A stretch of 64,000 nucleotides of DNA from Pseudomonas chlororaphis subsp. chlororaphis (GTDB taxonomy: Bacteria > Pseudomonadota > Gammaproteobacteria > Pseudomonadales > Pseudomonadaceae): contig NZ_CP027712.1 in the NCBI RefSeq assembly GCF_003945765.1, forward strand, positions 1,922,001 through 1,986,000, given 5' to 3'. Made by a program: the position numbers and the translations under genes. Below the pieces are notes generated by a model that made no database searches, was not told the DNA's origin, and saw only the letters and a list, made by a program, of their open reading frames with translations. How positions within the stretch are numbered: the first letter of the stretch is position 1; each line of letters opens with the position of its first letter. Positions 43,780-60,134 of the stretch are shown here, in pieces.

Positions 43780-45744
43780 ATGAATTCGGCCACGAACGGA
43801 CGTTTTGCCAACCTCGGCATGGCGAAAAAACTGGGTGTCGGCTTCACCCTGGTGCTGCTGCTGACGGCGCTGGTAGCCGCCATCGGCGTCTGGTCCCTGC
43901 AGACCATCAGCCAGCGTTTCGATGGCCTCAAGCAGATGTCGTCACTCAACAGCGGCTTGCTCAAGGTCCGCCTGCTCGAACAGAACTATGCCTTGCACGG
44001 TGACGCCAAAACCGCGGACGCCTTGCACGAGGGCATCGACGCCTTGCTGGCCCTGGCGGCGCAGCTCAAGGAACGTTCGGCGGCGAATGTGCCGGTGATG
44101 ACCGATGTCGAGCAGGCGCTGGGGGCTTACCGCAAGGCCTTCGACGAGTTCGTCGAGCTGACCCAGGCCAAGGACCTGGCGCTGGAAATGGCCAGTTGGT
44201 CAGTGTCCAGCGTGGCCAACAACCTCGACGTGCTGCAGGCCGGCCTGGCCGACGACGGTACCTATAGCCTCAAGGAGTCCGCCGGCAAGGAGGGCAGCGA
44301 GTTCGTCGAGCAGGCCAATCAGGTCAGCCAGGTCTCGCGCCTGATGCTGCAAGCGATGAACGAAGCCCGGGTGCGCCTGGACCAGAGCCGCAAGGGCGAG
44401 GAAGAGGTCGAGCAGGGCAAGATCGAGCAGGCCGACCAGGCCCTGGCCCAGGCCGAGCAGCTCAAGACCCTGGTCAAGGACGCCGGTTATCAGACGGTGC
44501 TCAACGAAGTGGTCGGGCATATCGGTGGTTTCAGCGAGAAGCTCGCCGAATACACCGGCTTGCTGGCGCAGGAGAAAAAGGTCTATCAGCAACTGCACGA
44601 GCGCGCCGCGCAGGTGATGGAGCGGGTCGACCAGGCGTACGGCGCGCAGGATCAGTCGATGCAGGCGGAGCTGAAAAAGAACTCGCTATTGATCGTCGCG
44701 TCTTCGGCCCTGGCGTTGCTGGTGGGCGTGTTGGCGGCCTGGATCATTACCCGTTTGATCGTCACTCCGCTGCGCAGCGTGATGCGCGTGGCGCAGCAGA
44801 TCGCCGCCGGTGACCTGAGCGCGACGGTGGAGGTGACGCGCCGGGACGAAATCGGCCAACTGATGCTGGCGATGCAACAGATGGGTAGCGGCCTGAGCGG
44901 TATTGTCAGCGGCCTGCAGGCAGGCATCGAACAGTTGGCCAGCTCGGCCCAGTCGCTGTCGGCGGTGACCGAACAGACCAATCTGGAAGTCAGCAGCCAG
45001 AAGGAAGAAACCGAGCAGGTGGCGACTGCGATGAACCAGATGACCGCCACCGTGCACGACGTCGCGCGCAACGCCGAAGAAGCCGCGCAGGCGGCGCAGA
45101 CCGCCGACGACAAGGTGGAAAGTGGCCAGCAGGTGGTGCGCCAGAGTATGCAGCGCATCGAACAGCTGGCGGATTCGGCCACCAGCGCCAGCTCCAGCAT
45201 CGAAAGCCTCAGCGCCGAGATCCAGAACATCGGCACCGTGCTCAGCGTGATCAAGAGTGTCGCCGAGCAGACCAACCTGCTGGCGCTGAACGCGGCCATC
45301 GAAGCGGCGCGTGCCGGCGAGCAGGGCAGGGGCTTCGCGGTGGTGGCCGACGAAGTGCGGGCCCTGGCCAAGCGCACCCAGCAATCCACCGAAGAGATCG
45401 AGCGCCTGGTCAGTGCCTTGCGCTCGGCGGCGCAGTCCTCGGTGCAGCAGATCCAGAGCAGCGGCGAACTGGTCAAGCTGGCGGTCAGCGATGCGCTGCA
45501 GACCGAAAGCGCGCTGGGCAGCATCGCCACGGCGGTGTCGCTGATTCAGCAGATGAACCAGCAGATCGCCGCGGCCGCCGAGCAACAAAGCTCGGTCGCC
45601 GAAGAGATCAACCGCAGCGTCACCAGCATCCGCGCCAGTGCCGATCAGTCGTCACTGGCCATGCAGGGCAATGCGGCGTCGAGCATCGAGCTGGCGCAGT
45701 TGGGGGTGGAGTTGAAGGGGATGGTCGGGCATTTCCGGTTGTAA
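43780..45744 (+). CDS. methyl-accepting chemotaxis protein with HBM-type sensor domain
   Basis: A 654-residue chemoreceptor with membrane segments near 18-37 and 301-323 and a long (about 260-residue) all-helical, Glu/Gln-rich periplasmic domain. That size and composition fit the helical bimodular (HBM) domain of P. putida McpS, which binds TCA-cycle acids at two sites. HAMP and the signalling tip [20 protein letters not shown] follow. The ATG at 43780 lies 9 bases after GGAAGGGGA; the frame is open to 43705 but lacks a signal there. Ligand unknown. Confidence 0.9.
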
Positions 45745-45831
45745 TGCCGCTGATGCTTGCTACAGGCTGCGCCGCCAGGGGCGCAGCCTTATAGACCGTG
45801 CCGTGCGAGTGGCTCGCGCGGCCGTTGCCGG

Positions 45832-46602
45832 TCAGTCGTAAATGGCTTTCTTCTTCCAGTCGGCGTCGGCTTCGACGACCTTCAGGCCTTCGGTCAATTG
45901 GTTGACCTCGCCTTCGACCGGCTGGGTGTTGGTCAGCACCATCGCGTTGGAGCGGGCCAGGAGTTTTTCCAGGTACTCCAGTTGTTCCCGATAGACCGCC
46001 GGGTCCGGCTGCTTGCGCAGGTATTGCACGCCGCGCTCGAACGCCAGGCGCGCCTGGCCGGGTTGTTCCTGCTGCAGGGCGTACTGGCCGAGGTTGTTGA
46101 AGAACTCGATGTGCAGCAGCACCAGGATGTGGCGGATTTCCCGGATCCAGTGCTTGGCTTCGTTGGTCGGCAGGAAGCCGTCCTGGGCGGCGCGAGTCAC
46201 CTGGCCATGCAGGGCTTCCAGGAGAAAGCGCACGTCCTTGGCCTTGGCTTCGGTCTGGATCGGGCAGGGCGGGTTGTTGACCGGAATCGATTCGCCCTGG
46301 CCGACCAGCGCGTTCAACTCGGCGATACGCGCCTTGAGCGCGGCATCGGTCTTGTTCAGGTTCAACAGACGCTGAACGACGTTGAGTTCCAGGCGGGTCA
46401 TCAGCAGCTTGAGCCCTGGCGACATGAACTGGCCGGGGAAGGTCTCGGTGATTTCGCCGCAGCGGCGCAGGCGGTCATTGAGTTCGACCTTGGTACGGGC
46501 CTTTTCCAGTTTGTTGTTTTCCACCACATGGTTCATGTAGCCAATGGCGATCAATATTACGATCCCGGCTACTACTAGCAGGGTGATCATGAGTGGTGTC
46601 AC
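45832..46602 (-). CDS. membrane-anchored helical protein of unknown function
   Basis: A 256-residue protein with one N-terminal membrane helix (about 5-23, ITLLVVAGIVILIAIGY) and a fully helical cytosolic or periplasmic remainder. The segment EFFNNLGQYALQQEQPGQARLAFERGVQYL looks like a TPR-type pair. I do not recognise a named family. It uses a GTG start at 46602, since GAGG lies nine bases upstream of it; the ATG at 46590 lies too far away. Confidence 0.72.
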   Translation of the reverse strand: MTPLMITLLVVAGIVILIAIGYMNHVVENNKLEKARTKVELNDRLRRCGEITETFPGQFMSPGLKLLMTRLELNVVQRLLNLNKTDAALKARIAELNALVGQGESIPVNNPPCPIQTEAKAKDVRFLLEALHGQVTRAAQDGFLPTNEAKHWIREIRHILVLLHIEFFNNLGQYALQQEQPGQARLAFERGVQYLRKQPDPAVYREQLEYLEKLLARSNAMVLTNTQPVEGEVNQLTEGLKVVEADADWKKKAIYD

Positions 46603-46851
46603 CGTGTAAGACCTCTTTCTGGGGTTCGCGTACGAGTGGCGAGTGTAGTGACTTAGCCTTGGGGCGCCTAGCGCAGGTCGACGAGCAGAAACAGGCCGAT
46701 TCTCTGCTTATATAGGAAATGTCTGGCTGGTTTCATATTGCCATCACCTAAGGATGTGGACTATAGCGTCTTGTCGAGTGTCAGAATATAGGCGTCAAGG
46801 CACAGGCTGCACAAATGCCCGAAAGGGCTCGCAAACCACCCCGAAGTCATT

Positions 46852-46906
46852 GATTTAAATAAATTTATATCAGGGGGTTGACGACCCTCCAATCCATCCA
46901 TAGAAT
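46852..46906 (+). promoter_or_regulatory. strong sigma-70 promoter with UP-like element for the tRNA array
   Basis: TTGACG (46878-46883), a 17-base spacer and TAGAAT (46901-46906) are followed by a GC-rich discriminator (GCGCGCC), the pattern of stable-RNA promoters under stringent control. Directly upstream is an AT-rich tract (46852-46870) that could act as an UP element. The rest of the 365-base gap after the membrane-anchored gene (46603-46851) shows nothing I can name. Confidence 0.85.
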
Positions 46907-46967
46907 GCGCGCCACTTGCAGCGTAAAGCACACAGCGAAACGCGGCAGGGAGTGAATGTTGTAGCGT

Positions 46968-47043
46968 GTCCCCTTCGTCTAGTGGCCTAGGACACCGCCC
47001 TTTCACGGCGGTAACAGGGGTTCGAGTCCCCTAGGGGACGCCA
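46968..47043 (+). tRNA. tRNA-Glu (TTC), copy 1
   Basis: A 76-base cloverleaf with encoded CCA. The acceptor stem GTCCCCT pairs with AGGGGAC, the anticodon loop CTTTCAC gives TTC, and the T arm contains GTTCGAGTC. Confidence 0.97.
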
Positions 47044-47045
47044 AT

Positions 47046-47121
<76 letters not shown>

Positions 47122-47225
47122 ATTTTAAACGGCACTGCTTTCGGGCGGGGCTGAGTGAAACCAGAACCGAGTCTTCGGAGGCGGGTCTGGACACCGAAAC
47201 ACACACCATGTGTTCCGGGTAGCGT

Positions 47226-47301
47226 GTCCCCTTCGTCTAGTGGCCTAGGACACCGCCCTTTCACGGCGGTAACAGGGGTTCGAGTCCCCTAGGGGACGCC
47301 A
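47226..47301 (+). tRNA. tRNA-Glu (TTC), copy 2
   Basis: Identical by eye to copy 1 including the GTAGCGT leader just before it. Anticodon TTC, encoded CCA. Confidence 0.97.
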
Positions 47302-47304
47302 TTT

Positions 47305-47380
<76 letters not shown>

Positions 47381-47386
47381 AACATA

Positions 47387-47450
47387 GAGCTACAGATTCT
47401 CAAAGGTCTGTAGCTCATCGAAAAAGGGTCCCATTCGGGACCCTTTTTTC
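47387..47450 (+). terminator. processing stem and Rho-independent terminator of the tRNA array
   Basis: A 10-bp hairpin (47387-47396 with 47407-47416) is followed by a second stem (AAAAAGGGTCCC at 47421-47432 with GGGACCCTTTTTT at 47437-47449). The second is a classical terminator; the first may be a 3' processing element. Confidence 0.88.
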
Positions 47451-47659
47451 GTTTCCGTCGGCAGTGGCCGAGTTTCGGTCCGTTGCTCCTCTGCAGTGCG
47501 GGATGACGCTGCTTTCCCCTTGTCCTGTACGCTGGCGCAGATCCTGTTCGGCGCCTACATGTTCCTGACCGTGCGCCCTGCCTTTGTGAGTGGGTGTTTG
47601 GCACAGGGTTTGCGAAGGTCTGGGCCTGATTGACCATCGATAGAGTGGTGCACCTTTAA

Positions 47660-48874
47660 ATGAGTATCTCCGTGGCGACAACTAAGGGTAATTGGCGGGC
47701 GGTCATCGCACTGACGTTGGCGGCCTTTGTGTTCAACACCACGGAGTTCGTCCCCGTCGGGCTATTGAGCTCGATCGGCAGCAGCTTCGACCTGTCGACG
47801 GCCCGGGTCGGTCTGATGCTCACTCTCTATGCCTGGATAGTGTCCCTGACTTCGCTGCCGGTCATGCTGCTGACGCGCAACGTCGAGCGACGCAAGCTGT
47901 TGCTCGTGCTGTTCGGGATGTTCATTGCCAGTCACATCCTGTCGGGGCTGGCCACGAGTTTCGGCATGCTGTTGCTGAGCCGGGTCGGTGTGGCCTTGTC
48001 CCATGCGCTGTTCTGGTCCATTACCGCGTCCCTGGCGGTGCGTCTGGCACCACCGGGAAAACAGGTCCAGGCCCTGGGTTTGCTGGCCACCGGTACTTCC
48101 CTGGCGATGGTGCTGGGTATTCCCCTCGGCCGGTTGCTGGGCGAGGCCATGGGCTGGCGGACCACCTTTATCGTGATTGCTGGCCTGGCCACCGCGCTGG
48201 TGTTCTGGCTGGCCAGGAGCCTGCCGTTGTTGCCCAGCCAGAACTCGGGTTCTCTCAGAAGCCTGCCGGTGCTGTTCAAGCGCCCTGCGCTGATGGCGCT
48301 CTATGTGCTGACGGCCCTGGTGGTCACCGCGCAGTTCACGGCCTACAGCTATATCGAGCCTTTCATCAAGGTGGTGGCCGGCTTGAGTGGCGATGTGGTG
48401 ACCCTCATCCTGCTGCTGTTCGGTGGCGCCGGTATCTTCGGCTCGCTGTTGTTCAGCAGGTTTCACCGCTACAGCCCGCAGCGCTTTCTGCTGGTGACGG
48501 TGGCGTTGCTCATTCTGTGCCTGGCATTGCTGTTGCCATTGAGCGGGGAGGTCTCGTACCTGGGCGGACTCAGCCTGATCTGGGGGATGGCGATCATGGG
48601 CTTCGGGCTGGCGCTGCAGTCCAGGGTCCTGGTGCTCGCTCCGGACGCTACCGATGTGGCAATGGCGCTGTTTTCGGGGATCTACAATATCGGCATCGGC
48701 GGCGGCGCGCTGCTTGGCAGCTGGGTAGGGGGCCAACTCGGGTTCGCCTATATCGGCTTGGCCGGCGGCTTGCTGGCGGCCTTGGCGCTGCTGTTCTACT
48801 GCGCATCCATCTATCGCCTGGCCCGGTCCAGCGTTCCGGGCGCCGATTGTGCTGATATTGCGACAGAGAAGTAG
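47660..48874 (+). CDS. sotB: sugar efflux-type MFS transporter
   Basis: A 404-residue major facilitator with 12 predicted helices. The N-terminus [22 protein letters not shown] and the [19 protein letters not shown] segment are those of SotB (YdeA) sugar/arabinose exporters. Its substrate here is unproven. It is the first gene after the tRNA array and starts what looks like an accessory block. Confidence 0.88.
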
Positions 48875-48909
48875 AGCACTGGAGTCGGGCGTCGAGCACA
48901 GTCATATAT

Positions 48910-48954
48910 AAAAAGGGGGCAATGACTCAGACGAATCATTGCCCCCTCTTTTTT
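48910..48954. terminator. bidirectional terminator between sotB and the TpsA gene
   Basis: The 11-bp stem GGGGGCAATGA (48915-48925) with TCATTGCCCCC (48936-48946) has A upstream and TCTTTTTT downstream. A further stem (AACCCTGC at 48978-48985 with GCAGGGTT at 49000-49007), reading TTTTATT on the minus strand, is a second candidate terminator for the TpsA gene. Confidence 0.88.
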
Positions 48955-49014
48955 CTCAAGCAGATAGCCAGAATAAAACCCTGCGCCCTTTTAACCGGGG
49001 CAGGGTTCCGGATT

Positions 49015-52000
49015 TCAGAGCTGCTTGCCGATCAGTGGAGCCTTGGCCGCCTCCCCGAAGACGCTGTTGAGGGATTGTTGGCCCGGTCCGAAGTTCATGC
49101 CGATCAGGCCGCCATAGATCTGGTTATAGGCGGGCGAGCCGTCGATCCTGCCGCCTGCCGACGACAGGCGCACATTGCCGAGATTCAACCCCACCAGCCC
49201 GCCCAGGCGCGCGCCATAGCCGCCACTGACGTTGCTGGTAGCCTTGGAGTTGCTGATCTGCCCGCTGTTCACACCGACCAGGCCGCCCACGTTGCTGTTG
49301 TTGCCACCTTTGACCGAGCCTCTGGCGGAGGAGTTGCTGATCTTGCCCAGCAGGGCACCGACTAGGCCGCCGACATTGCTATCGTTACCACTGGTCACTA
49401 TGGCGTCTGCCGAGGCGTTGCTGATGTCGGTATTTTGGCTATAGCCCACCAGGCCGCCGACACTGGACCCACTGCCTCCCGTGACAGTCGCGGAGGTGGA
49501 GGAAGCATTGGAGATGAAGGCCTTGTCGCTGTAGCCGACCAGACCGCCAATGTGGGCGTTTCTGCCGCCAGTCACGGTGCCGGAGGCCGAGGAGTTGGCG
49601 ATGCGACCGCCCAGGGTTTTACCAATCAGGCCGCCAACGCTACGACTGCTCAGGTCGGACACATTGCCGGTGGCCCGGCTGTTGGTGATCGACCCGTTAT
49701 GGTTCTTGCCCACCAGGCCTCCGATCGCTTCCGTACCATTGCCCGTTACCTGGCCGCTGGCGTGAGAGTTGGTCAGCGAACCTTGCCAGTTGAGCCCGAC
49801 CAGGCCGCCGACCCGAGCGAATTCGCCGCCCGAGACATGGCTGCTGGAGTGCGAGTTGACGATGCTGCCATTGTAGCTGTTCACTCCGACCAGGCCGCCG
49901 ACGTTCAGGTTGGCGCCCGAGAGGTTGGCGGTACCGGCGCTGGAGGAGTTGGCGATGATGCCGCCGTGGTTCGAACCCACCAGCCCGCCTGCGCCATAGG
50001 AGTCATACAGCATCTGGCCCAAAAGTCTGACATCGGCATGACTATTGGTGATTTTCGCCACGCCATCGGGGTTGGTGATGTTTTCCCCCACCAAGCCACC
50101 CATTGCATAGGTGTACTGGTTGCCGATCACCTGGCCGCTGGCCGAGGAGTTGGCGATGTCGCCGGCCAGGTTGAGCGCTACCAGGCCGCCCAGCGAGTTC
50201 AGGTGAGAGGCTCCGGTCACCCGCACGTCCTTGGCCTTGACGTTGCGGATGCTGCCCATGTTCACCGCGGCAAGTGTGCCGACCTGGGTGTTGTAGTGGG
50301 TGGAATAAGCGCCGCTGGCGGAAATGCGTTCCAGGTTCAGGTTGCTGATCTGCCCCAGGTTCGCGCCGAACAGCCCGACAAAGGCAGTGGTGCCATAGAT
50401 CGACAGGTCGCTGATGGTATTGCCCAGGCCATCAAGCTTGCCGGTGAAGGAGCTACCTTCGCCAAGCGTCCTGAAGCTGCCTTGGCCGGTGATCTGGTTA
50501 CCCAGTACATAGCGGCCATTCATGTCGTTTTCGATATCGCGCAACTGCTTCAGGTTCTGCACCACCTGGTAGGACTCGCCGTTGGCGCTGAAGCGGGCAT
50601 CCGTACCAGAGAGGGTGACGCTCTTGTCATTCTTGAGGCTGTGGCCGTTTTTGGAGTTCAGCTCCAGGCCCGCTCCCGTTCCGGTCAGCTCGACGTTGTC
50701 ATTCAGCTGGATGCCGCCCTGCGCGGCGTTCAGGGCCAGGGCTGCGCCGGTACCGGTGGCGCTCAATGCCGCATTCACCTGGACGTCGCCGCGTTCGGCG
50801 GTCAGGCCGAGCTTGTTACCGCTGTTCCAGGACACCGCCTTGTTGACCGACAGGTTGCCCTTGCTGCTCAGTTCGACGTTGGTCCGGGCCAGGTTCTGGG
50901 CCAGGGTATCGGCGTGCAGCGTCGGGACAGTGCCGCTATTGCCGCCCGTTCCATTGTTACCGTTGATACCGCCGCCAATGATCAATCCACGCGTGGACGG
51001 ATTCTCTGCCTTGGAAACGTTCACCTCGTCTGCGCTGATCTTCCAGGTACCGGTCGTGCCCTGGTCGGCGTGCGTATCCACTTGCGCAGCCAGTTGGACC
51101 TCGACCCGGGCGCCGCGGTTTTCCACCACGCCACCGTTACCCTGGCCACCCAGGGCGCTGGCGTCCTGGCGTCCGGCCACCTGGACGATGCCGTTGTCGC
51201 CACCGTCCAGGACAATCTTGCCGGCCTTGTTCTGCAAGGTCTTGGCCTCGATCACGCCCTGGTTGCTCACCACGTTTTTCAGAAGGCTGCTGGCGCTGCT
51301 GGCGGTCATCAACACCTGGCCGCCGTCGGCCTTGAGCAGGCCGCCGTTCTGCACCAGGGCATCCACCGCGGCACCGTTCACCTGCAGGTTGAGCAGGCCG
51401 TTACCGTCGAAGTTGACGCTGAAGTCCTTGCCCGCGCCCAGCGCGACACTGCCCATCTGCGCCTGGATCACCCCGCTGTTGCTGACCTGGGCACCTAGCA
51501 ACGCGACGCTGCCGCCCTCGCTGGCGGTGATCTGGCCGGCGTTGCTCACGGCAGAGCTGGAATTCCCGGTAAAGCGGTAAGTACCGTCGAGGAAATCCTT
51601 GTCGCTGATGTTCTGGGTGGAGGCCACCAGGCCGCCGACGTTGACCTGGGCGGACTTGCCGAAGACCACGCCATTGGGGTTGATCAGGAACACCTTGCCG
51701 TTGGCATCGATGCGGCCCTGGATATCGCTGCCATTGATGCCCAGTACCCGGTTGAGGGCGATCGATTGGCTACCGGGCTGGTGGAAGCTGACGCTTTCGT
51801 CGCCAGCGACGCTGAACTCGTTCCAGTTGGTGATCAGTTTGTTGCTCTGTTGGTCGACGGTCATGTGTTTGCCGTCGACAGTGGTATGGATGCCAGCATC
51901 GCCCGCGACTATCGCCGCTCCGTTCGGCAAGGCGAAGGCCGGGGCCTGGGCCAGCAGGCCCAGCAGCGAGAAGCCGGCGGCGATCACGACCTTGAGTCGG

Positions 52001-52089
52001 CTTGATTTGCCCCGGCGTCGGGTTCCTTCGCTGGCGACGTTCCAGCAACCAGTGGCCTGGTTCCAGATCAGTGCATAGCTTTTGTTCAT
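49015..52089 (-). CDS. filamentous-haemagglutinin-like TpsA exoprotein with GLUG repeats (CupB5-like)
   Basis: A 1024-residue predicted surface or secreted adhesin. Domains in order: extended signal peptide (ESPR, MNKSYALIWNQATGCWNVASE) with hydrophobic core and cleavage near A53; TPS/haemagglutination-activity domain (about 54-320) with the secretion motif NPNG (137-140); a low-complexity beta-helix region; and from about residue 600 at least 13 GLUG repeats (GGLVG or GGLIG every 25-30 residues). TpsA proteins need a TpsB or P-usher partner, and none lies in the window. Length, fold and the chaperone/tip adhesin next door recall P. aeruginosa CupB5. AGAGGAAG precedes the ATG at 52089. Strongly divergent, by a 1.07-kb gap, from the chaperone gene. 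Confidence 0.88.
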   Translation of the reverse strand: MNKSYALIWNQATGCWNVASEGTRRRGKSSRLKVVIAAGFSLLGLLAQAPAFALPNGAAIVAGDAGIHTTVDGKHMTVDQQSNKLITNWNEFSVAGDESVSFHQPGSQSIALNRVLGINGSDIQGRIDANGKVFLINPNGVVFGKSAQVNVGGLVASTQNISDKDFLDGTYRFTGNSSSAVSNAGQITASEGGSVALLGAQVSNSGVIQAQMGSVALGAGKDFSVNFDGNGLLNLQVNGAAVDALVQNGGLLKADGGQVLMTASSASSLLKNVVSNQGVIEAKTLQNKAGKIVLDGGDNGIVQVAGRQDASALGGQGNGGVVENRGARVEVQLAAQVDTHADQGTTGTWKISADEVNVSKAENPSTRGLIIGGGINGNNGTGGNSGTVPTLHADTLAQNLARTNVELSSKGNLSVNKAVSWNSGNKLGLTAERGDVQVNAALSATGTGAALALNAAQGGIQLNDNVELTGTGAGLELNSKNGHSLKNDKSVTLSGTDARFSANGESYQVVQNLKQLRDIENDMNGRYVLGNQITGQGSFRTLGEGSSFTGKLDGLGNTISDLSIYGTTAFVGLFGANLGQISNLNLERISASGAYSTHYNTQVGTLAAVNMGSIRNVKAKDVRVTGASHLNSLGGLVALNLAGDIANSSASGQVIGNQYTYAMGGLVGENITNPDGVAKITNSHADVRLLGQMLYDSYGAGGLVGSNHGGIIANSSSAGTANLSGANLNVGGLVGVNSYNGSIVNSHSSSHVSGGEFARVGGLVGLNWQGSLTNSHASGQVTGNGTEAIGGLVGKNHNGSITNSRATGNVSDLSSRSVGGLIGKTLGGRIANSSASGTVTGGRNAHIGGLVGYSDKAFISNASSTSATVTGGSGSSVGGLVGYSQNTDISNASADAIVTSGNDSNVGGLVGALLGKISNSSARGSVKGGNNSNVGGLVGVNSGQISNSKATSNVSGGYGARLGGLVGLNLGNVRLSSAGGRIDGSPAYNQIYGGLIGMNFGPGQQSLNSVFGEAAKAPLIGKQL

Positions 52090-53161
52090 GGTGCTTCCTC
52101 TATATGAATACTCTGCTGATCCCCCCAGCAGAACGGGTACAACGGATGCGGGCAGGCGCCGAGGCGATCACGCAAAGCCGCAGCGCCATTCCCTCCAGTC
52201 GGGAGGGCAAGTTGTTTGTCTCAATCCGCACTTGATTTCATGGTCTTCGAAGCAAGGGAGACTCATGAGTCTGTTTGTCAGGTGAAATCTGCTGCCTAGC
52301 GTCTAAAAAATTGCTGTTCGACGGTTTCGAATGACTATCTGATTTCGAGGGCAAATTGATCGCGAGCCTGTACACGGCAGAGTCGATGTCTGGAGTTTTT
52401 TTTGCATGTAAATACTTGGTTGCTCAGAGGGCTGTATTAATTAACAAAAGTAAATAAAAGAAAAAACCAGAACTTTCTTAACTGGTGTACGGCGCTTTCC
52501 CAGTTGAAGTAAAGCAGCAGGCTATTGCGCTCGTCATATTGAGGTCCTTGTTGTCTGATGCCCGATGGCGTGGCGAAATCTGAAGCGCGATTGCGTGGGG
52601 AGACCGCCGCTTTCTCTGCGTTTGGGGGCATCTCAAACCAGCGCTCCAGGGCTTTAAACCTGTCTGGCAGGCTTTCTCGATCGTCGAGCCTGGACCGTTT
52701 CGGACTGCAGTGCTTTTTTGTCCTGTGAGAGGGTTGTCTAAGTTAAAACCAGGATGTAAGAGGGCAGGGGGATACTTCATTCATGTCGGGAAGTATCAGG
52801 TTCATGAGGGGATAACATTTCGAATATCAGGGGGTGGAAATACCCGTCTGGAGTTTCTGGAACGACAACACTTGTTTTCCGCAACTACTGATGCGCAGAC
52901 AGATATCTGTCGATATGGGTTTTGAGGGTGGTACTGATTCCGTTCGCTCTTTTCTACTTTCGTATATGAGTGAGCATGTTGTTCCTTTTAGGAATCGTCC
53001 TACTGATTACGACGCCTATCTACTGTAGTTTTCCTGCCTCCTGACTTTCTCGAGCGTCACGAATACCCGAACGGTTCGCCCCGTCGAGTCATCGATGTTT
53101 TTGCATGGCGCGCAACAACGGGGGGCTGCCCTTCGACGCATACTGAGGTAAAGAATTTACC
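52090..53161. promoter_or_regulatory. 1.07-kb A+T-richer divergent region between TpsA and chaperone genes
   Basis: No convincing gene. It has lower G+C than its surroundings, with A/T tracts (for example 52431-52468) and T runs near 52395. Short open frames (longest about 70 codons, for example 52834-53028) lack both convincing ribosome sites and codon bias. It must hold the promoters of both adhesin transcripts, and its composition suits silencing by MvaT/MvaU-type proteins. It could also be the scar of lost pilin or usher genes. Both are inferences. Confidence 0.6.
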
Positions 53162-53878
53162 GTGAAGACTCCAGCCATCGCCGGATTGATTCTGGCCAGC
53201 TTCGCCCTGTTTTTTCCTGCTTTCTCCCAGGCCGGCATCAACCTGGAAAACACCCGTGTGGTGCTTGCGGCGCCGAGCAAGGAAGCGTCCCTGGTGATCA
53301 AGAACAGCGCGGCCGAGGACCTGATGTTCCAGGCCTGGGTCGAGTCGGCCGACAAGAGCGAGGATGTGCCCTTCGCCATCACCCCGGTGCTCAAGCGCCT
53401 GGCTGGCGAACAGCAGCAGGTGTTGCGCATCCTCTACAGCGGCAAGGGCCTGCCGACCGACAAGGAGTCGCTGTACTGGCTGAACGTGCGGGAGGTTCCG
53501 CAAAAGTCCCGGGAGGAAAATACCCTGCAAATCGCCGTGCAGCAGCGCCTCAAGCTGTTCTACCGGCCGGCCGGGCTACCCGGCAAGGTCACGGAGGCCC
53601 CGCAACAGCTGAAGTGGCGCCTGCTTGCCAAAGACGGCAAGCCCTATCTGGAGGTGACCAACCCGTCGGCTTTCCACCTGTCTTTTGCCGCGATCACGTT
53701 GCGGATGGGAAGCAAGGGTTTCACCGCGCCGATCGATATGGTCGCGCCGGCTGCCACTACTCAGGTCGAGATGGCGGACCTGCCGAGCGGCGTCCAGGCT
53801 AACGACCTCAAGGTTGAGTTCGAAGTCATCGGCGATTTCGGTGGAATCCTCAAATACGACGGCGCCATCTCTGGCTGA
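53162..53878 (+). CDS. periplasmic fimbrial chaperone (PapD-like, CupB4-like)
   Basis: A 238-residue chaperone. Signal peptide 1-24 (ending FSQA) and two Ig-like domains. The subunit-binding Arg lies in LENTRVVL and the Lys in QQRLKLFYRP, the two basic anchors of PapD chaperones. The loop before RLKLFYRP is short, as in FGS chaperones. GTG start at 53162 after GAGGTAAA. Next is a tip-adhesin-like protein; no usher or major pilin follows. Confidence 0.92.
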   Translation: MKTPAIAGLILASFALFFPAFSQAGINLENTRVVLAAPSKEASLVIKNSAAEDLMFQAWVESADKSEDVPFAITPVLKRLAGEQQQVLRILYSGKGLPTDKESLYWLNVREVPQKSREENTLQIAVQQRLKLFYRPAGLPGKVTEAPQQLKWRLLAKDGKPYLEVTNPSAFHLSFAAITLRMGSKGFTAPIDMVAPAATTQVEMADLPSGVQANDLKVEFEVIGDFGGILKYDGAISG

Positions 53879-53983
53879 GGCCTGGCGTCATATGGCAGAG
53901 ACGAGAAGCTTCTCGCTACTTCTCTTTGCTCATCATCGATTTGTACCCAGGCACTTCATAGGGCGTGGGAAGGAATCTTATAT

Positions 53984-54949
53984 ATGCGAAAACTGATCTT
54001 CATCTTGATGTTTTTATCCAGCCTTTTTGCTCGAAATGCGCTTGCAGCTTATTGCTCATTGCCCAATGGTACTCCGCTGATAAAGGACATCATTCTCCCT
54101 GCTCAAACCCTCATCAAGGCCGCCTCCATCGGGCAGGAGATTGCTAGACATCGGGTAACGAACCTCTGGAGCGGGGAGGTTAGGTGCATTGGACTGCAGA
54201 CTGTTTCTATTACTGCGGATACCGCACTGACCCCATCGGCACTTCCGGCGGTGTATGAGACGGGCATCAAGGGTGTTGGGGTCAAATTCTGTCTGGCGCT
54301 GGATCTGAGTAACGGCAGCTGGTGTACCCCATACTCCTGGACGCCTCCATCGGGGAATCCAGTCCTTCCCAGGTTTATGGATGTTGTATTCGTTCGCACC
54401 GGTCGCGGCGTGGCATCAGGAAATGCGCCGATGAAGTTCAGCGTAACCTGGGCTAGGGGGGACGTATCCGTTCAGGTCCGATCACAAGGCACTACCGAAC
54501 TGGTCAACGATATATTTTTCGCTGGCTGCGAATCGGTGGGGGCGGCGGTCAATGTCCAGATGGGTAAACAGACCATCGAAAATATTACCAAGGGTAGCGT
54601 CAGAGAAGTGCCATTCAACTTCGATGTCCGTTGCGAAGGCTTGAAGCCTGATACGAAAGTTCCGGTGAAAGCCTACTTCGAAGGCAACTCCCAGGCCGAC
54701 GGCCTGCTCAAACTTGTCAATCTAGGCCAGCCCGGCGTTGCATCGGGAGTTGGTATTTCCCTGGTCAATAACAAGGGCGTCAAGTTGCCATTCGATATCT
54801 CCAGGTCCGTCGCCCTCGATTGGAACCGGGAGATAGCGGAAGGCTCCATTTACCGGTTCTCCGGCAGCGCCAAATACGTTCCGACAGGTGGCGAGATAAA
54901 ACCGGGCAAGGGCGATGCGACCATGAGCTTCGTTCTCAACTACAACTGA
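53984..54949 (+). CDS. two-domain fimbrial tip adhesin (CupB6-like)
   Basis: A 321-residue exported protein, signal peptide to about residue 22 (LFARNALA). The N-terminal half (about 23-175, four cysteines) looks like a receptor-binding lectin-type domain. The C-terminal half (about 180-321) is a pilin domain: a Cys near GCESVGAAVNVQMG, VRCEG, and a last strand ATMSFVLNYN, as needed for chaperone/usher capping. Codon use is less GC-biased than the flanks. A ribosome site (AAGGAATC) precedes the ATG. 105 bases after the chaperone. It would need an usher supplied from elsewhere. Confidence 0.82.
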   Translation: MRKLIFILMFLSSLFARNALAAYCSLPNGTPLIKDIILPAQTLIKAASIGQEIARHRVTNLWSGEVRCIGLQTVSITADTALTPSALPAVYETGIKGVGVKFCLALDLSNGSWCTPYSWTPPSGNPVLPRFMDVVFVRTGRGVASGNAPMKFSVTWARGDVSVQVRSQGTTELVNDIFFAGCESVGAAVNVQMGKQTIENITKGSVREVPFNFDVRCEGLKPDTKVPVKAYFEGNSQADGLLKLVNLGQPGVASGVGISLVNNKGVKLPFDISRSVALDWNREIAEGSIYRFSGSAKYVPTGGEIKPGKGDATMSFVLNYN

Positions 54950-55265
54950 TCGTCATCGGTGGCGGGCACATATTCTTCTGCTCGCCGACCTGTTTCCTGC
55001 CCCGATCGGATGGCTATCGCGAGCCAGTTGCTGTCCAGCCTTCCCGAGCCCCCAGAGCACAAGGGCGCGATTAGTCGAGAAAGGCTCTCGCCGCTCGATG
55101 TCACAACCGCCGGCGCCCGGCTAGAATACCGACGGATCACTCTTGATCCATCCCCCATTGCCACAGATCAAAGCGGCACTCTCCGTAAGAGGGTGACGCT
55201 ATTGCTCGTGGGACAACGGCCCATTTGCGCAGGTTGCCGGGGTTCGATTCACAGGAAGGTATTCC
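54950..55265. other. 316-base gap between tip adhesin and hybrid kinase, no gene seen
   Basis: No plausible protein gene, hairpin terminator or repeat stands out. An open frame from 54959 has codon use unlike neighbours and runs into the kinase gene. It presumably holds the kinase promoter, but no clear -35/-10 pair was found. Confidence 0.5.
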
Positions 55266-58142
55266 ATGATTCCAGCGTGTTGTCGGATGGTCGCTCTCTG
55301 CCTGTTACTTGTTCTGTCACCCGCCCTGGTCGCACAGGAGCCTGACATCTCCCTTGTCGCAAGGGTGGCAGTGATCAGCCGGCCATGGCTGAGTGAAGTG
55401 GATCGACAGTGGCTGGCGAGCAGAGGCCCACTCACGATCGGGGTGGCATTGCCCGACTATCCGCCGCTGGGCATGCTCGACGTCAATCGTTTTCAGGGCG
55501 TCACCGCGGATTACCTCGCCCTGCTGTTCGAGATCCCCCCCAAAGTCCGTCAGTTCCCTTCCCGGCAGGCGGCATTGATCGCGCTGCACAAGGGTGAGAT
55601 TGACCTGGTCGGCGGTGGCTCCGCGATGGATGCCGAGGATAACGGTCTGCTCCTGACCCAGGCCTATGAGCCGAATCAACCGGTGCTGGTAACCGCCGAA
55701 GGCCGTCCTTTCGACCCACAAGCAACCGGCACCCGGCTGGGGGTGTTTGCCGGCTATCGTGTCGAGGAAAAGGTCTCCGCGGTTTATCCGAACAGCCAGA
55801 TCCTGCCATTCGCCTCGCCGCTGCGCGCGCTCGAGGCGTTGAGCCTGGGAGAGGTCGATGGGGTGATCGATGACGCGGTGTCCGCCCACTATCTGCTCAA
55901 CATCAACTACTTGCTGGACCTGCACATCGAAAACTTCGCGCCGGTGGAAAGCCGTGGTTTCGGCTTCCTGGTGCGCGCCTCCGATACTCGCCTGCATGCC
56001 GTGATCGAACGAGCCATTCCGACCATTCGCTCACGCCATAGCGAAAGTATTCTGCGCAATTGGAGTGCGGGGAGCAGCCTGCGCCTGACTCAGCAGCGCG
56101 TGACGCTGACGCCCGCCGAGAACCGTTGGCTGGACGCCCATCCGGAAATCCCGGTGACTGTCCATGACTCTCTCGGCGCCTTGGGACAATTGGACAACAG
56201 TGGGCAGGTGCGGGGTATCGGCCCCGACTATCTCAAATTGCTCAGCCAGCGCAGCGGCCTGACGTTCCGCTTTGTCCGCGCGCAGAACTATGCCGAGATG
56301 AACGCGCAGATAACCGAGGGCAAGACCCTGATGACCTCGGTTACGTCTGCCGACACCGACACCGAGGCCTATATGGATATCCTTCTTCCTTATCTGAGGA
56401 GCTCGGTGGTACTGATGGCCGGACCCAAGGCAGCCCGTACCCAGGGCAGTCCTTTCCATAGCCTGAATGACCTGCAAGGCAAGCGCCTGGCCAGTGTCCC
56501 GGGTTATTTCGTCAATCAGATCATCCAGCAGAACTATCCGGATATCCGCTTACAGATCTATCCCAACTTTCTGGAGGCCATGCGCAGTGTCGACGACGGG
56601 CGTAGCGACGCGTTCATCGGCAGTGACTACACCGGTCGTTTCCTGTCCGCCCAGCGTTTCAACAACCGCTTGCGCGTAATAGGCATTCTTGACGAGTTCT
56701 CCCGACCGGTCAGCCTTGGGGTGCTGAAGGGGCAGGAAGAACTGCGCAGCATCCTGGAGAAGGCCCAGGTGGCGATCACCCCGGAGGAAGTGGCGGACAT
56801 CGTGGAACAGTGGGAGCCGCGTATTTCTACCTTGGGCAGCCATTTCTGGCGGGATCATCGCAGCAATATCCTCCGGCTTGGCGGTGTCTTCGGCTTGCTG
56901 GTCCTGTTGTCGCTGATCTGGGGTTTCTACCTGACCCGGCAGGTGCGCAAGACCCGCCAGGCCGAAGGCGAGCTGGCGCTGGCGCGGGAGAAGGCCGAAG
57001 CGGCCAACGAGGCCAAGAGCATCTTTTTGTCCACCATGAGCCATGAGATCCGTACCCCGCTGAACGCCATCATCGGCCTGCAGGAAGTGGTGCAGCAGAA
57101 GGCCGAACGGGGCGAGCTGGACCTGGCGTCGCTGGCCGTCGCGCAGGAGGCGGCACAGGGGCTGCTGCTGTTACTCGGCAATGTGCTCGACCTGAACCGG
57201 ATCGAGTCGGGGATGATCGACTCGGCGCCCGAGGCGGTGCAGCTCAAGGCCCAGATCGAAGCGATCGCGCCCCTGGTAGTCGGCATGGCGCGACAGAAGC
57301 AGCTGGCGTTCGAGATGCGGTTCACTGGTGACATGGAGCAATGGGTGCTGATCGACCCGCTGCATTTGAAACAGGTGCTGTTCAACCTGCTGAGCAATGC
57401 CATCAAGTTCACCGAGCGCGGCCGGGTGACGCTGCATGCCTCGGGCAGCCGGGAGGCAGAACATCTGCACCTGTTGCTGGAGGTCATCGACAGCGGTATC
57501 GGCATCTCGGAGCAGGACCAGGCCAGATTGTTCCAGCCATTCTCCCAGGTCAGTTCGGCTCAGGCCGGGCAAACCTTTGGCAGTGGGCTGGGGCTGAATA
57601 TCACCCGGCGGCTGGTCGAACTCATGGGCGGCACTATCGTCCTGAGCAGCGAACCGGATATAGGCTCCTGCTTCAGCGTGACCCTGCAACTGCCTCTGGC
57701 CGAGGCGCCTGCCGAAGCGGCGGCAGAAGTACCGCAGGCGAGCACGGAGCCGCTTTCGCTGAATATCCTCGTTGCTGAGGACAATGCGTTCAGCCGGCTG
57801 ACGCTGGAAGAGCAATTGCTGGTTCTGGGGCATCGCGTGACGCTGGTCGAGGATGGGCAGGCGGCGTGGGAAGCCTGGCTGGCCGCCGAGTACGATGTGT
57901 TGATCACCGACAGCCAGATGCCACGCCTGGGCGGCTATGACTTGACCGTGCGCATCCGCCAGATGGAGCGCGAGGAGGGGCGCCGGCGCTGCTGGATCCT
58001 GGGGGCGACCGCCAGTGCCGAGGACGCGGAAATCCAGCGCTGCCTGGCCGCCGGGATGGATGAGGTGGTGTTCAAGCCCCTGACCCAGCAGGTGCTGAGG
58101 CAGGCCCTGGAGAATACTCAACGAGCCCCTGCACGGGCTTGA
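55266..58142 (+). CDS. BvgS/RocS-like hybrid histidine kinase with two periplasmic binding domains
   Basis: A 958-residue sensor. Signal peptide, then two SBP_bac_3 (Venus flytrap) domains in tandem (about 50-265 and 290-520), one membrane helix (about 537-557), HisKA with MSHEIRTP (H593), ATPase boxes [15 protein letters not shown] and SGLGLN, and a receiver domain with acceptor Asp in VLITDSQMP (D882). It ends right after the receiver, so the Hpt domain present in BvgS and RocS1 is absent. No response regulator is adjacent. Placement beside the CupB-like genes suggests it controls them, as Roc kinases do for cup genes in P. aeruginosa. Phosphate would have to leave via an Hpt encoded elsewhere. 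Confidence 0.88.
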
Positions 58143-59416
<1,274 letters not shown>

Positions 59417-59495
59417 TCGTGGATCGGAACTGAGCAAGCCTGTGTCGAGCCGCCAGTTGCTGGCGGCTCGCTTGAGCAGGGCGTTGGGATGCGGC

Positions 59496-60134
59496 TTACA
59501 TCGACAGGATCAGGCGCCCGGCGAACAGAATCAGGATCACTCCCATGGTTCGCTCGAACCAGTGGCCCATGCGCATGAACAGCAAGCGCACCCGCGGGCT
59601 GGAAAAGAACAGCGCGACGATCACGAACCACAGCGCGTTCACACAACACATCCATACACCGTAGAGCGCCTGCACCTTGAGGGGCGTGGTGGCGCTGATC
59701 ACCGTGGTGAAAATCGCCAGGAAGAACAGCGTGGCCTTGGGGTTGGTGGCGTTGGTCAGGAAACCGGTCATGAAGGCCTTGGGCAAGGTCTGCCGCTGCA
59801 CCTGATCGTTGTTCGTGTCGCTGCCCTCGATCGATGTCTTGGGTTTGCTGCGCAACAGGCTGACCCCGAGATAAAGAATGTAGGCGCCGCCCACCACCTT
59901 GGCCACGCTCAGCAGCCATGGCGTGGTATGCATCAGCGCACCGACCCCCAGCAGGGTGTACAGCACATGCACGGAAATCCCCGCGCCGATGCCGATGGCC
60001 GTGCACAGCCCGACCACCCGGCCAAAGCGCACGCTCTGGCGGATGGTCACGGCAAAGTCAGGCCCGGGAGCCACCACGGCGAGAAAGTGGATGGTCGCCA
60101 GGGCCAGGAATTCGCCTAGATAGTTGGAAAGCAT
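59496..60134 (-). CDS. LysE/RhtB family amino-acid exporter
   Basis: A 212-residue inner-membrane protein with six predicted helices, the N-terminal PGPDFAV motif and the GFLTNATNPKATLFFLAIF stretch of the LysE superfamily, which exports amino acids (lysine, threonine, homoserine) or analogues. It is the last gene of an apparent minus-strand operon, one base after a 2-oxoglutarate oxygenase gene, so its substrate may be the product of that enzyme. Confidence 0.88.
   Translation of the reverse strand: MLSNYLGEFLALATIHFLAVVAPGPDFAVTIRQSVRFGRVVGLCTAIGIGAGISVHVLYTLLGVGALMHTTPWLLSVAKVVGGAYILYLGVSLLRSKPKTSIEGSDTNNDQVQRQTLPKAFMTGFLTNATNPKATLFFLAIFTTVISATTPLKVQALYGVWMCCVNALWFVIVALFFSSPRVRLLFMRMGHWFERTMGVILILFAGRLILSM

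What the first reader, a model, noticed from the sequence alone, without database searches (positions are those of the whole stretch)
49015..54949. A CupB-like adhesin module without usher, pilin or TpsB
Seen: a 1024-residue TpsA/FHA-type exoprotein (minus strand), a PapD-type chaperone and a two-domain tip adhesin (plus strand), grouped within 6 kb and facing apart. Known: in the P. aeruginosa CupB locus, a chaperone (CupB4), a TpsA-like protein of similar size (CupB5, about 1018 residues) and a tip adhesin (CupB6) follow the pilin CupB1, chaperone CupB2 and the P-usher CupB3, which handles both fimbriae and CupB5. Here the three distal genes are present while CupB1-3 are absent, and the TpsA gene is inverted. 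Either they borrow an usher/TpsB encoded elsewhere, or the cluster has decayed, or this is a new minimal arrangement.
Basis: partly seen in the sequence, partly recalled or inferred. Interest (0 to 1): 0.82.

Follow-up and report, generated by a model that had tools for sequence, protein, structure and literature searches.

The report
Usher-less pilus tip with swappable head
A stretch of a Pseudomonas genome carries a secreted adhesin-like protein and a pilus-tip protein with its helper but no export gate for either; fitting gates sit elsewhere in the same genome, and a near-copy of the tip gene keeps the same plug while its surface-binding head has been exchanged.

Summary
The three genes are real and intact, but they are not a CupB module. 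The TpsA falls with TpsA4/LepA-type exoproteins, apart from CupB5 (100/100). The chaperone falls with CupC-type chaperones (97/93), apart from CupB2/CupB4. The gene behind them is a RocS4-like sensor kinase. A CupB-like operon with its own TpsB lies about 340 kb away, and a CupC-like pilin-chaperone-usher-adhesin operon lies at 5.86 Mb. In this genome 6 of 8 long fimbrial-domain genes lie outside any usher operon. In relative G416 the CupC-like operon at the same place has no adhesin, while the window site has two. So the genes most likely feed a shared CupC-type usher and a shared LepB-type TpsB (inferred). One TpsB carrying two TpsA proteins is already reported for LepB. The new part is the tip gene. 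Against a second copy at 1.55 Mb, the chaperone is 95% identical, the pilin domain 93%, but the head only 64%, with synonymous divergence 0.14, 0.34 and 1.26 and breakpoints at the chaperone stop and near the domain border. Homologues show the same mosaic. Assembly through the shared usher is not shown.

The parts
46968..47380 (+). tRNA-Glu, tRNA-Gly, tRNA-Glu, tRNA-Gly cluster next to the block; the same four tRNAs stand beside the block in G416
   Evidence: ARAGORN on L031 and L079; Rfam RF00005 x4
49015..52089 (-). TpsA exoprotein, 1024 aa (ESPR, TPS domain with NPNG, GLUG repeats), TpsA4/LepA clade; no local TpsB
52958..54974 (+). segment present as a second copy at genome 1.546 Mb (84.7% DNA identity over 2035 columns): upstream region, chaperone and adhesin
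   Evidence: blastn L031 8958-10974 vs L026 5889-7904
53162..53878 (+). PapD-type periplasmic chaperone, 238 aa, CupC-type clade; 95% identical to the copy at 1.546 Mb
53879..54487 (+). exchanged cassette: intergenic stretch, signal peptide and most of the receptor-binding domain (63% DNA identity to the second copy, against 94% upstream and 91% downstream)
   Evidence: maximum-likelihood breakpoints on a 3-base grid
53984..54949 (+). two-domain fimbrial tip adhesin, 321 aa; head residues 23-177, pilin domain 179-321
55266..58142 (+). hybrid histidine kinase (SBP_bac_3 x2, HisKA, HATPase_c, Response_reg), RocS4-like
   Evidence: PMC12051241 section 2.5 read

Best explanation
The block is an accessory adhesin island beside a tRNA cluster, made of parts whose machines lie elsewhere in the same chromosome. 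(1) Shown: the chaperone and tip adhesin are CupC-type, and the only CupC-type usher among the three usher matches of this genome is in the operon at 5.86 Mb. Inferred: the local chaperone delivers the tip adhesin to that usher, which caps a CupC-like pilus with an alternative head. (2) Shown: the TpsA is of the TpsA4/LepA clade and the genome holds one LepB-family TpsB, in the CupB-like operon. Inferred: that TpsB secretes both its own TpsA and the window TpsA. (3) Shown: the downstream kinase groups with the kinase beside the cupC-like operon in PA7. Inferred: it controls these adhesins through a Roc-type relay. (4) Shown by sequence: copies of the tip gene share chaperone and pilin domain but differ in the head, with recombination-type breakpoints. 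Inferred: heads are exchanged by homologous recombination through the conserved chaperone gene and pilin domain, giving a repertoire of binding heads for one pilus machine.
For: Own-genome comparison: window chaperone 51% to the CupC-like operon chaperone, 29-31% to the two CupB-like ones; adhesin 36% to the CupC-like adhesin, no hit to the CupB-like adhesin; C-terminal strand KPGKGDATMSFVLNYN against KPGKADATMTYVLDYN in the CupC-like adhesin. Trees: TpsA, chaperone; kinase; usher, quick method. G416: the operon at the same place as the CupC-like hub has pilin, chaperone and usher but no adhesin, by tblastn and by the PF00419 list, while the window site holds one chaperone and two adhesins. 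Three of the 6 usher-less long fimbrial genes of the window genome also have no PapD_N match nearby. TpsA genes outnumber LepB-family TpsB genes in 10 of 22 genomes (9 if a weaker TpsB beside the second TpsA of G219 is counted) and are fewer in none. One TpsB serving LepA and CupB5 is reported for LepB (PMC12051241 passage). Mosaic. Purifying selection: dN/dS about 0.10 pilin domain, 0.17 chaperone, 0.21 head (from dN and dS).
Against: No experiment shows cross-assembly. Window and hub chaperones are only 51% identical, so usher compatibility is not assured. G416 has a second CupC-clade usher (L141) with its own adhesins, so pili there may be capped in another way. Satellites like the window pair were found only in G000 and G416 among 398 genus genomes (5 candidates scored a genome; three weak matches, G032, G399 and G446, not examined), so co-occurrence with the hub usher could not be tested over many lineages. 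The TpsB tree does not resolve LepB from the CupB-like TpsB proteins, and a lone TpsB at 780 kb with no TPS gene near it (23% to the CupB-like TpsB) could be the partner instead. Best-ranked Foldseek match of the adhesin is CupB6, and CupB2 is among the best solved chaperones by sequence. The groups in the incongruence test were chosen after seeing the identity matrix. Gene conversion that keeps chaperone and pilin domain alike would leave much the same pattern as head exchange.
Confidence: 0.6

Rival explanations
1. A rearranged or relict CupB module: the distal cupB genes (chaperone, TpsA, adhesin) moved away from cupB1-3 and the TpsA gene turned round.
For: TpsA length (1024 aa) close to CupB5 (1009 aa as called in PA7), similar gene set, 50% identity to the TpsA of the CupB-like operon, CupB6 as best-ranked fold match of the adhesin.
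Against: TpsA and chaperone trees exclude CupB5, CupB2 and CupB4; a CupB-like operon with its own second chaperone, TpsA and adhesin is present at 1.63 Mb; the G416 site shows no usher.
Confidence: 0.04
2. A decayed or non-functional cluster kept by chance.
For: No usher, pilin or TpsB in place; some homologous adhesin proteins in the database are short (P0014, P0017, P0023, P0024, P0040, P0044).
Against: All frames are open; dN/dS between copies about 0.1-0.2; chaperone, adhesins, TpsA and kinase are kept in G416 at the same site.
Confidence: 0.1
3. The satellite adhesins are exported by the CupB-like usher or another pathway, not by the CupC-like usher.
For: Usher promiscuity is known in other systems (recalled); the CupB-like operon is nearer on the chromosome.
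Against: Adhesin sequence, C-terminal strand and chaperone match the CupC-like set.
Confidence: 0.15
4. Head diversity is ordinary fast evolution under relaxed or positive selection on one domain, without recombination.
For: Head below pilin-domain identity in 902 of 903 pairs, as for many adhesins; in the second homologue set the contrast is weaker (median head identity 0.72 where pilin is 0.85 or more, 9 of 192 such pairs under 0.60).
Against: Synonymous divergence also differs: 1.26 head, 0.34 pilin, 0.14 chaperone (Fisher p 1.5e-6 head against pilin, 4e-18 head against chaperone); tree incongruence p-AU 0.0022 and 3e-77.
Confidence: 0.12

Closest known systems
P. aeruginosa LepBA (Tps4) two-partner system with CupB5
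   Same: Database proteins named TpsA4 are among the TpsA's homologues; it shares a clade with the PA7 TpsA of the TpsB-TpsA pair beside clpB; a TpsB of the same family is in the genome; one TpsB for two TpsA is reported for LepB.
   Different: Here the TpsB sits in the CupB-like operon with another TpsA, and the LepA-type TpsA stands alone beside fimbrial genes.
P. aeruginosa/P. paraeruginosa cupC operon with RocS4 and HptA
   Same: Chaperone, usher hub and the neighbouring hybrid kinase match the PA7 locus that has the described cupC surroundings (PMC12051241 section 2.5).
   Different: No pilin or usher in place; chaperone and adhesin are a satellite pair with further copies in the genome.
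P. aeruginosa CupB operon (CupB1-6)
   Same: Contains a chaperone, a TpsA of similar size and a two-domain tip adhesin (CupB6 is the best-ranked fold match).
   Different: Different clades for chaperone and TpsA; no sequence match of the adhesins; the CupB equivalent is elsewhere in this genome and carries a TpsB.
Two-domain tip adhesins FimH, LpfD, CupB6, Abp1D/Abp2D
   Different: Encoded outside an usher operon, with exchanged heads on a near-constant pilin domain.

Membership tests
CupB module | TpsA groups with CupB5 | tested here: not met
   Window TpsA in 6-row clade 100/100; PA7 CupB5 in the other 17-row clade
CupB module | Chaperone groups with CupB2 or CupB4 | tested here: not met
   Window chaperone in the CupC-type clade 97/93
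CupB module | Local P-usher and pilin | tested here: not met
   Three usher matches in the genome, none in the window block
TpsA4/LepA-type TpsA | Same clade as the P. aeruginosa-group TpsA beside clpB | tested here: met
   database proteins named TpsA4 match at 71% over a stretch covering 35% of the query. That the PA7 pair beside clpB is lepBA is recalled from its place
TpsA4/LepA-type TpsA | Cognate TpsB next door | tested here: not met
   The only LepB-family TpsB of the genome at 48% or more is in the CupB-like operon
TpsA4/LepA-type TpsA | Protease activity as reported for LepA | not testable with these tools
   No assay; no GDSG motif in any of four TpsA proteins scanned
CupC-type chaperone and adhesin | Chaperone in the clade of chaperones next to CupC-type ushers | tested here: met
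CupC-type chaperone and adhesin | Pilin and usher in the same operon | tested here: not met
RocS4-like hybrid kinase | Two SBP_bac_3 stretches, HisKA, HATPase, one receiver, no Hpt match; groups with the kinase next to hptA/cupC | tested here: met
   PA7 kinase lies beyond an Hpt-like gene (38% over 77 aa to another kinase, no profile search) at the cupC-like operon, as described for P. paraeruginosa in PMC12051241
Chaperone-usher tip adhesin | N-terminal receptor-binding domain plus C-terminal pilin domain | tested here: met

The most novel reading that the evidence does not exclude
Pseudomonas of this group run a hub-and-satellite pilus: one CupC-type usher operon, in G416 without any adhesin of its own, is served by many tip adhesins scattered over the chromosome, whose binding heads are exchanged as cassettes between a constant chaperone gene and a constant pilin domain. 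This would be a fimbrial counterpart of cassette-based antigenic variation, missed by surveys that start from ushers.
Probability: 0.4. Interest if true: 0.78.

Novelty: new variant of a known kind. Interest (0 to 1): 0.6.

Why it matters
Chaperone-usher pili are normally counted by their ushers and treated as closed operons with one tip. If usher-less tip genes supply alternative heads to a shared usher, the binding range of a strain is larger than its operon count suggests, and it can change by recombination of a 0.6-kb cassette. It also gives orphan TpsA proteins of the LepA/CupB5 family a simple explanation: one TpsB, several exported proteins. All predictions can be tested by single gene deletions in a plant-associated Pseudomonas.

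Tried and rejected
CupB membership: rejected by trees. Decay: disfavoured by intact frames and dN/dS. Window block at the PA2583 (rocS4) hotspot of P. aeruginosa: window flanks were searched in 20 stretches of PA7 (2.60-2.78 and 2.82-3.04 Mb); no flank match above 45% identity was printed. The tRNA-Gly, Cys and Leu genes seen in PA7 there resemble the tRNA-Leu/tRNA-Cys surroundings of another satellite pair (L027, 3.93 Mb), not the window site. A G416 stretch meant to show the place of the 1.55-Mb copy (L148) gave no match to that place. Promoter and terminator scans gave no more than shuffled sequence (2 against 2.1; 6 against 6.6). Rfam found only the four tRNAs in 45000-60000. Solved-structure sequence search with the adhesin gave 7 weak pilin-domain hits (E 0.03 to 0.15).

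Literature: 10 searches. No title or shown start of an abstract in these listings was about usher-less tip adhesins or head exchange in Pseudomonas; searches returned no paper. The E. coli and Salmonella surveys report no orphan ushers (passages), which does not bear on orphan adhesins. Only open-licence papers are held, so absence is weak evidence. An older view, that the P-usher CupB3 carries CupB5, is told in PMC3031594 (passages). Papers: PMC12051241 passages and the whole of section 2.5; PMC3031594, PMC5422565, PMC3559732, PMC3373541 passages; all others search listings only; PMC4420518 not held.

Weak points of counting: gene calls on fetched stretches came from a simple GC3-based script, which sometimes picks antisense ORFs and wrong starts; key genes were checked by tblastn or profile search. 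One search scored only 2 candidates a genome, so TpsA counts use. That the 8 long fimbrial genes are two-domain adhesins was modelled for the window protein alone; for the others it rests on length and similarity. The domain borders 22-160 and 165-321 used were set before the structure; searches use 22-177 and 179-321. One search used 20 of 48 sequences; one search dropped 5 of 48 that lack a domain; one search used 35 of the 57 rows, chosen by hand. One of the strong TpsB matches (G257) has a stop inside.
Full report
OBSERVATION. The window is 1,922,001-1,986,000 of a single 6.81-Mb contig. Most of the nearest named homologues of the adhesin are from Pseudomonas chlororaphis, and relative G416 has the contig length of Pseudomonas sp. 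MRSN 12121, so the host is probably P. chlororaphis or close to it. The block also contains a hybrid sensor kinase, 55266-58142, and lies beside four tRNA genes.

WHAT ELSE THE GENOME HOLDS. There are 3 usher matches, 7 PapD_N matches, 6 TPS-domain matches and 6 POTRA_2 matches. Around 1.63 Mb lies a CupB-like operon: pilin, chaperone, usher, second chaperone, TpsB, TpsA, adhesin. Around 5.86 Mb lies a second operon: pilin, chaperone, usher, adhesin, between an NADH-dehydrogenase-like gene and clpB (these two names are recalled). The third usher is distant from both (22-23% identity).

RELATIONSHIPS. Window TpsA is 50% identical to the CupB-like TpsA but falls in a different, fully supported clade with two PA7 TpsA proteins outside cupB, a Cupriavidus basilensis TpsA and two G416 TpsA proteins; PA7 CupB5 is in the other clade. 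Database proteins named TpsA4 are among its homologues. In C. basilensis the order is TpsB, TpsA, then a kinase 57% identical to the window kinase. The window chaperone is 51% identical to the chaperone at 5.86 Mb and 29-31% to the CupB-like chaperones, and groups with CupC-type chaperones. The usher at 5.86 Mb groups with the G416 usher at the same place (100) and then with a PA7 usher (SH-aLRT 92, quick tree). That PA7 operon has an Hpt-like gene and a hybrid kinase upstream, the arrangement described for cupC in P. paraeruginosa (PMC12051241). The window kinase groups 100/100 with that PA7 kinase, the C. basilensis kinase and the G416 kinase. So the block joins a LepA-type TpsA, a CupC-type chaperone and tip, and a RocS4-like kinase.

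SYNTENY. In G416 the same chromosomal place, with matching flank genes 84-100% identical, has TpsA (69%), an autotransporter-like gene of 1140 aa, the chaperone (60%), two tandem adhesins (53%) and the kinase (79%). Its operon at the clpB place has pilin 61%, chaperone 71% and usher 71%, but no adhesin by tblastn or by the PF00419 list. G416 also has a second CupC-clade usher operon with its own adhesins (L141).

USHER-LESS ADHESINS. PF00419 matches: 11 in the window genome, 18 in G416, 7 in PA7. Of the 11, 8 lie in open frames of 319 aa or more and 3 in pilin-sized frames. Two of the 8 are in usher operons; 6 are not. Three of the 6 follow a chaperone (window, 1.55 Mb, 3.93 Mb) and three have no PapD_N match nearby (0.995, 4.01, 4.03 Mb). 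G416 has at least seven long ones outside usher operons: two at the window site, L082, L083, L197, L198 and L199, the last two behind a chaperone. PA7 has two (6.27 and 6.49 Mb), one of them 43% identical to the window genome's gene at 4.03 Mb. With the window adhesin as query, 2 of 144 genomes matched at 1e-20 (own included) and 10 of 398 at 1e-8 (own included, 5 candidates scored a genome). In 5 of these 10 (G073, G258, G314, G327, G406) the match lies in a CupC-like operon; G000 and G416 carry the satellites; three weak matches (G032, G399, G446) were not examined.

MOSAIC TIP GENE. A 2-kb segment (upstream region, chaperone, adhesin) has a second copy at 1.55 Mb, 84.7% identical. Identity is not even: chaperone 95% protein identity and dS 0.14; head 64% and dS 1.26; pilin domain 93% and dS 0.34. 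Counts of synonymous change differ between head and pilin domain (Fisher p 1.5e-6), head and chaperone (4e-18) and, less, pilin domain and chaperone (0.002). The best three-segment split, on a 3-base grid, breaks at 53879, the base after the chaperone stop codon, and at 54487 (residue 169), close to the modelled head/pilin border at 177-180. The tandem pair in G416 shows the same contrast (dS 2.03 head, 0.67 pilin). Among 43 of 48 adhesin sequences with both domains, the head is less alike than the pilin domain in 902 of 903 pairs; 62 of 83 pairs with pilin identity of at least 0.85 have head identity below 0.60. One homologue (P0007) is 99% identical to the window protein in the pilin domain and 46% in the head, while its head is 75% identical to that of P0011. 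The head clade of P0007 with four others (100/100) is rejected by pilin data (p-AU 0.0022), and pairing P0007 with the window protein is rejected by head data (p 3e-77) but not by pilin data (0.51) (groups chosen after seeing the identities). In the orphan-adhesin class the contrast is weaker. dN/dS of 0.1-0.2 argues against decay.

TPSB SHARING. Counting TpsB matches of 48% identity or more (E below 1e-160) and TpsA genes of this family in 22 genomes, TpsA exceeds TpsB in 10: window genome 2:1, G416 3:1, PA7 3:1, P. spelaei 2:1, G061 3:2, G409 3:2, G073 2:1, G327 3:1, G432 at least 3:1, and G219 2:1, where a weaker TpsB (40%) lies beside the second TpsA. It is below it in none (split hits of one gene counted once). 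PMC12051241 states, citing Garnett et al. 2015, that LepB transports both LepA and CupB5 (passage). So sharing of one TpsB is known; the window TpsA is a likely further case. The TpsB tree is unresolved and a lone TpsB at 780 kb remains a possible partner.

MECHANISM. Shown: gene content, clades, adhesin-less hub in G416, mosaic. Inferred: satellites load onto the CupC-like usher; the CupB-like TpsB exports the window TpsA; the kinase regulates them; heads move by homologous recombination, or flanks are kept alike by gene conversion.

VERDICT. Observation confirmed; CupB reading not supported; the borrowing option is supported, from two other systems. New variant of a known kind, with a testable and more novel reading.

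Noticed in passing
L023 (genome 1,622,001-1,641,000), also L144, L084, L085, L086, L090, L094, L095, L096: CupB-like operons with an in-operon TpsB: 9 of the 11 cupB-like operons with an usher that I read have one; PA7 cupB (L145) has none, and in P. spelaei (L041) the TpsB lies beside the operon on the other strand. P. aeruginosa CupB, on which the P-usher idea rests, may be the odd one out.
   Followed up: partly
L084, L085, L086, L089: Some cupB-like loci carry two or three tandem TpsA genes behind one TpsB.
   Followed up: partly
L079:12745-16167 (G416): An autotransporter-like gene of 1140 aa sits between TpsA and chaperone at the window-equivalent site, so the site may collect adhesins of three secretion types. 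Judged by eye from the sequence, not by a profile search.
   Followed up: no
L024, L026, L027, L031, L038, L039: These cup and TpsA loci lie within about 2.5 kb of tRNA genes, while stretches with adhesin-only genes (L098, L099, L196, L082, L083, L200, L201) show none; the clpB-tRNA site holds TpsB-TpsA in PA7 but the CupC-like operon in the window genome. No chance estimate was made.
   Followed up: partly
L201:6433-7488 and L200:6802-7821 (PA7): PA7 carries two long fimbrial genes outside any usher operon; relatives of the first are named in the P. aeruginosa group.
   Followed up: partly
L081:6113-9580 and L040:10001-12976: Further LepA-clade TpsA genes without a neighbouring TpsB in G416 and PA7.
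   Followed up: yes
L028:4393-6159 (genome about 780 kb): A TpsB gene with no TPS-domain gene near it.
   Followed up: no
proteins P0014, P0017, P0023, P0024, P0040, P0044: Short relatives of the adhesin in the protein database, one losing the frame inside the pilin domain; could be decayed copies, wrong starts or silent cassettes.
   Followed up: no
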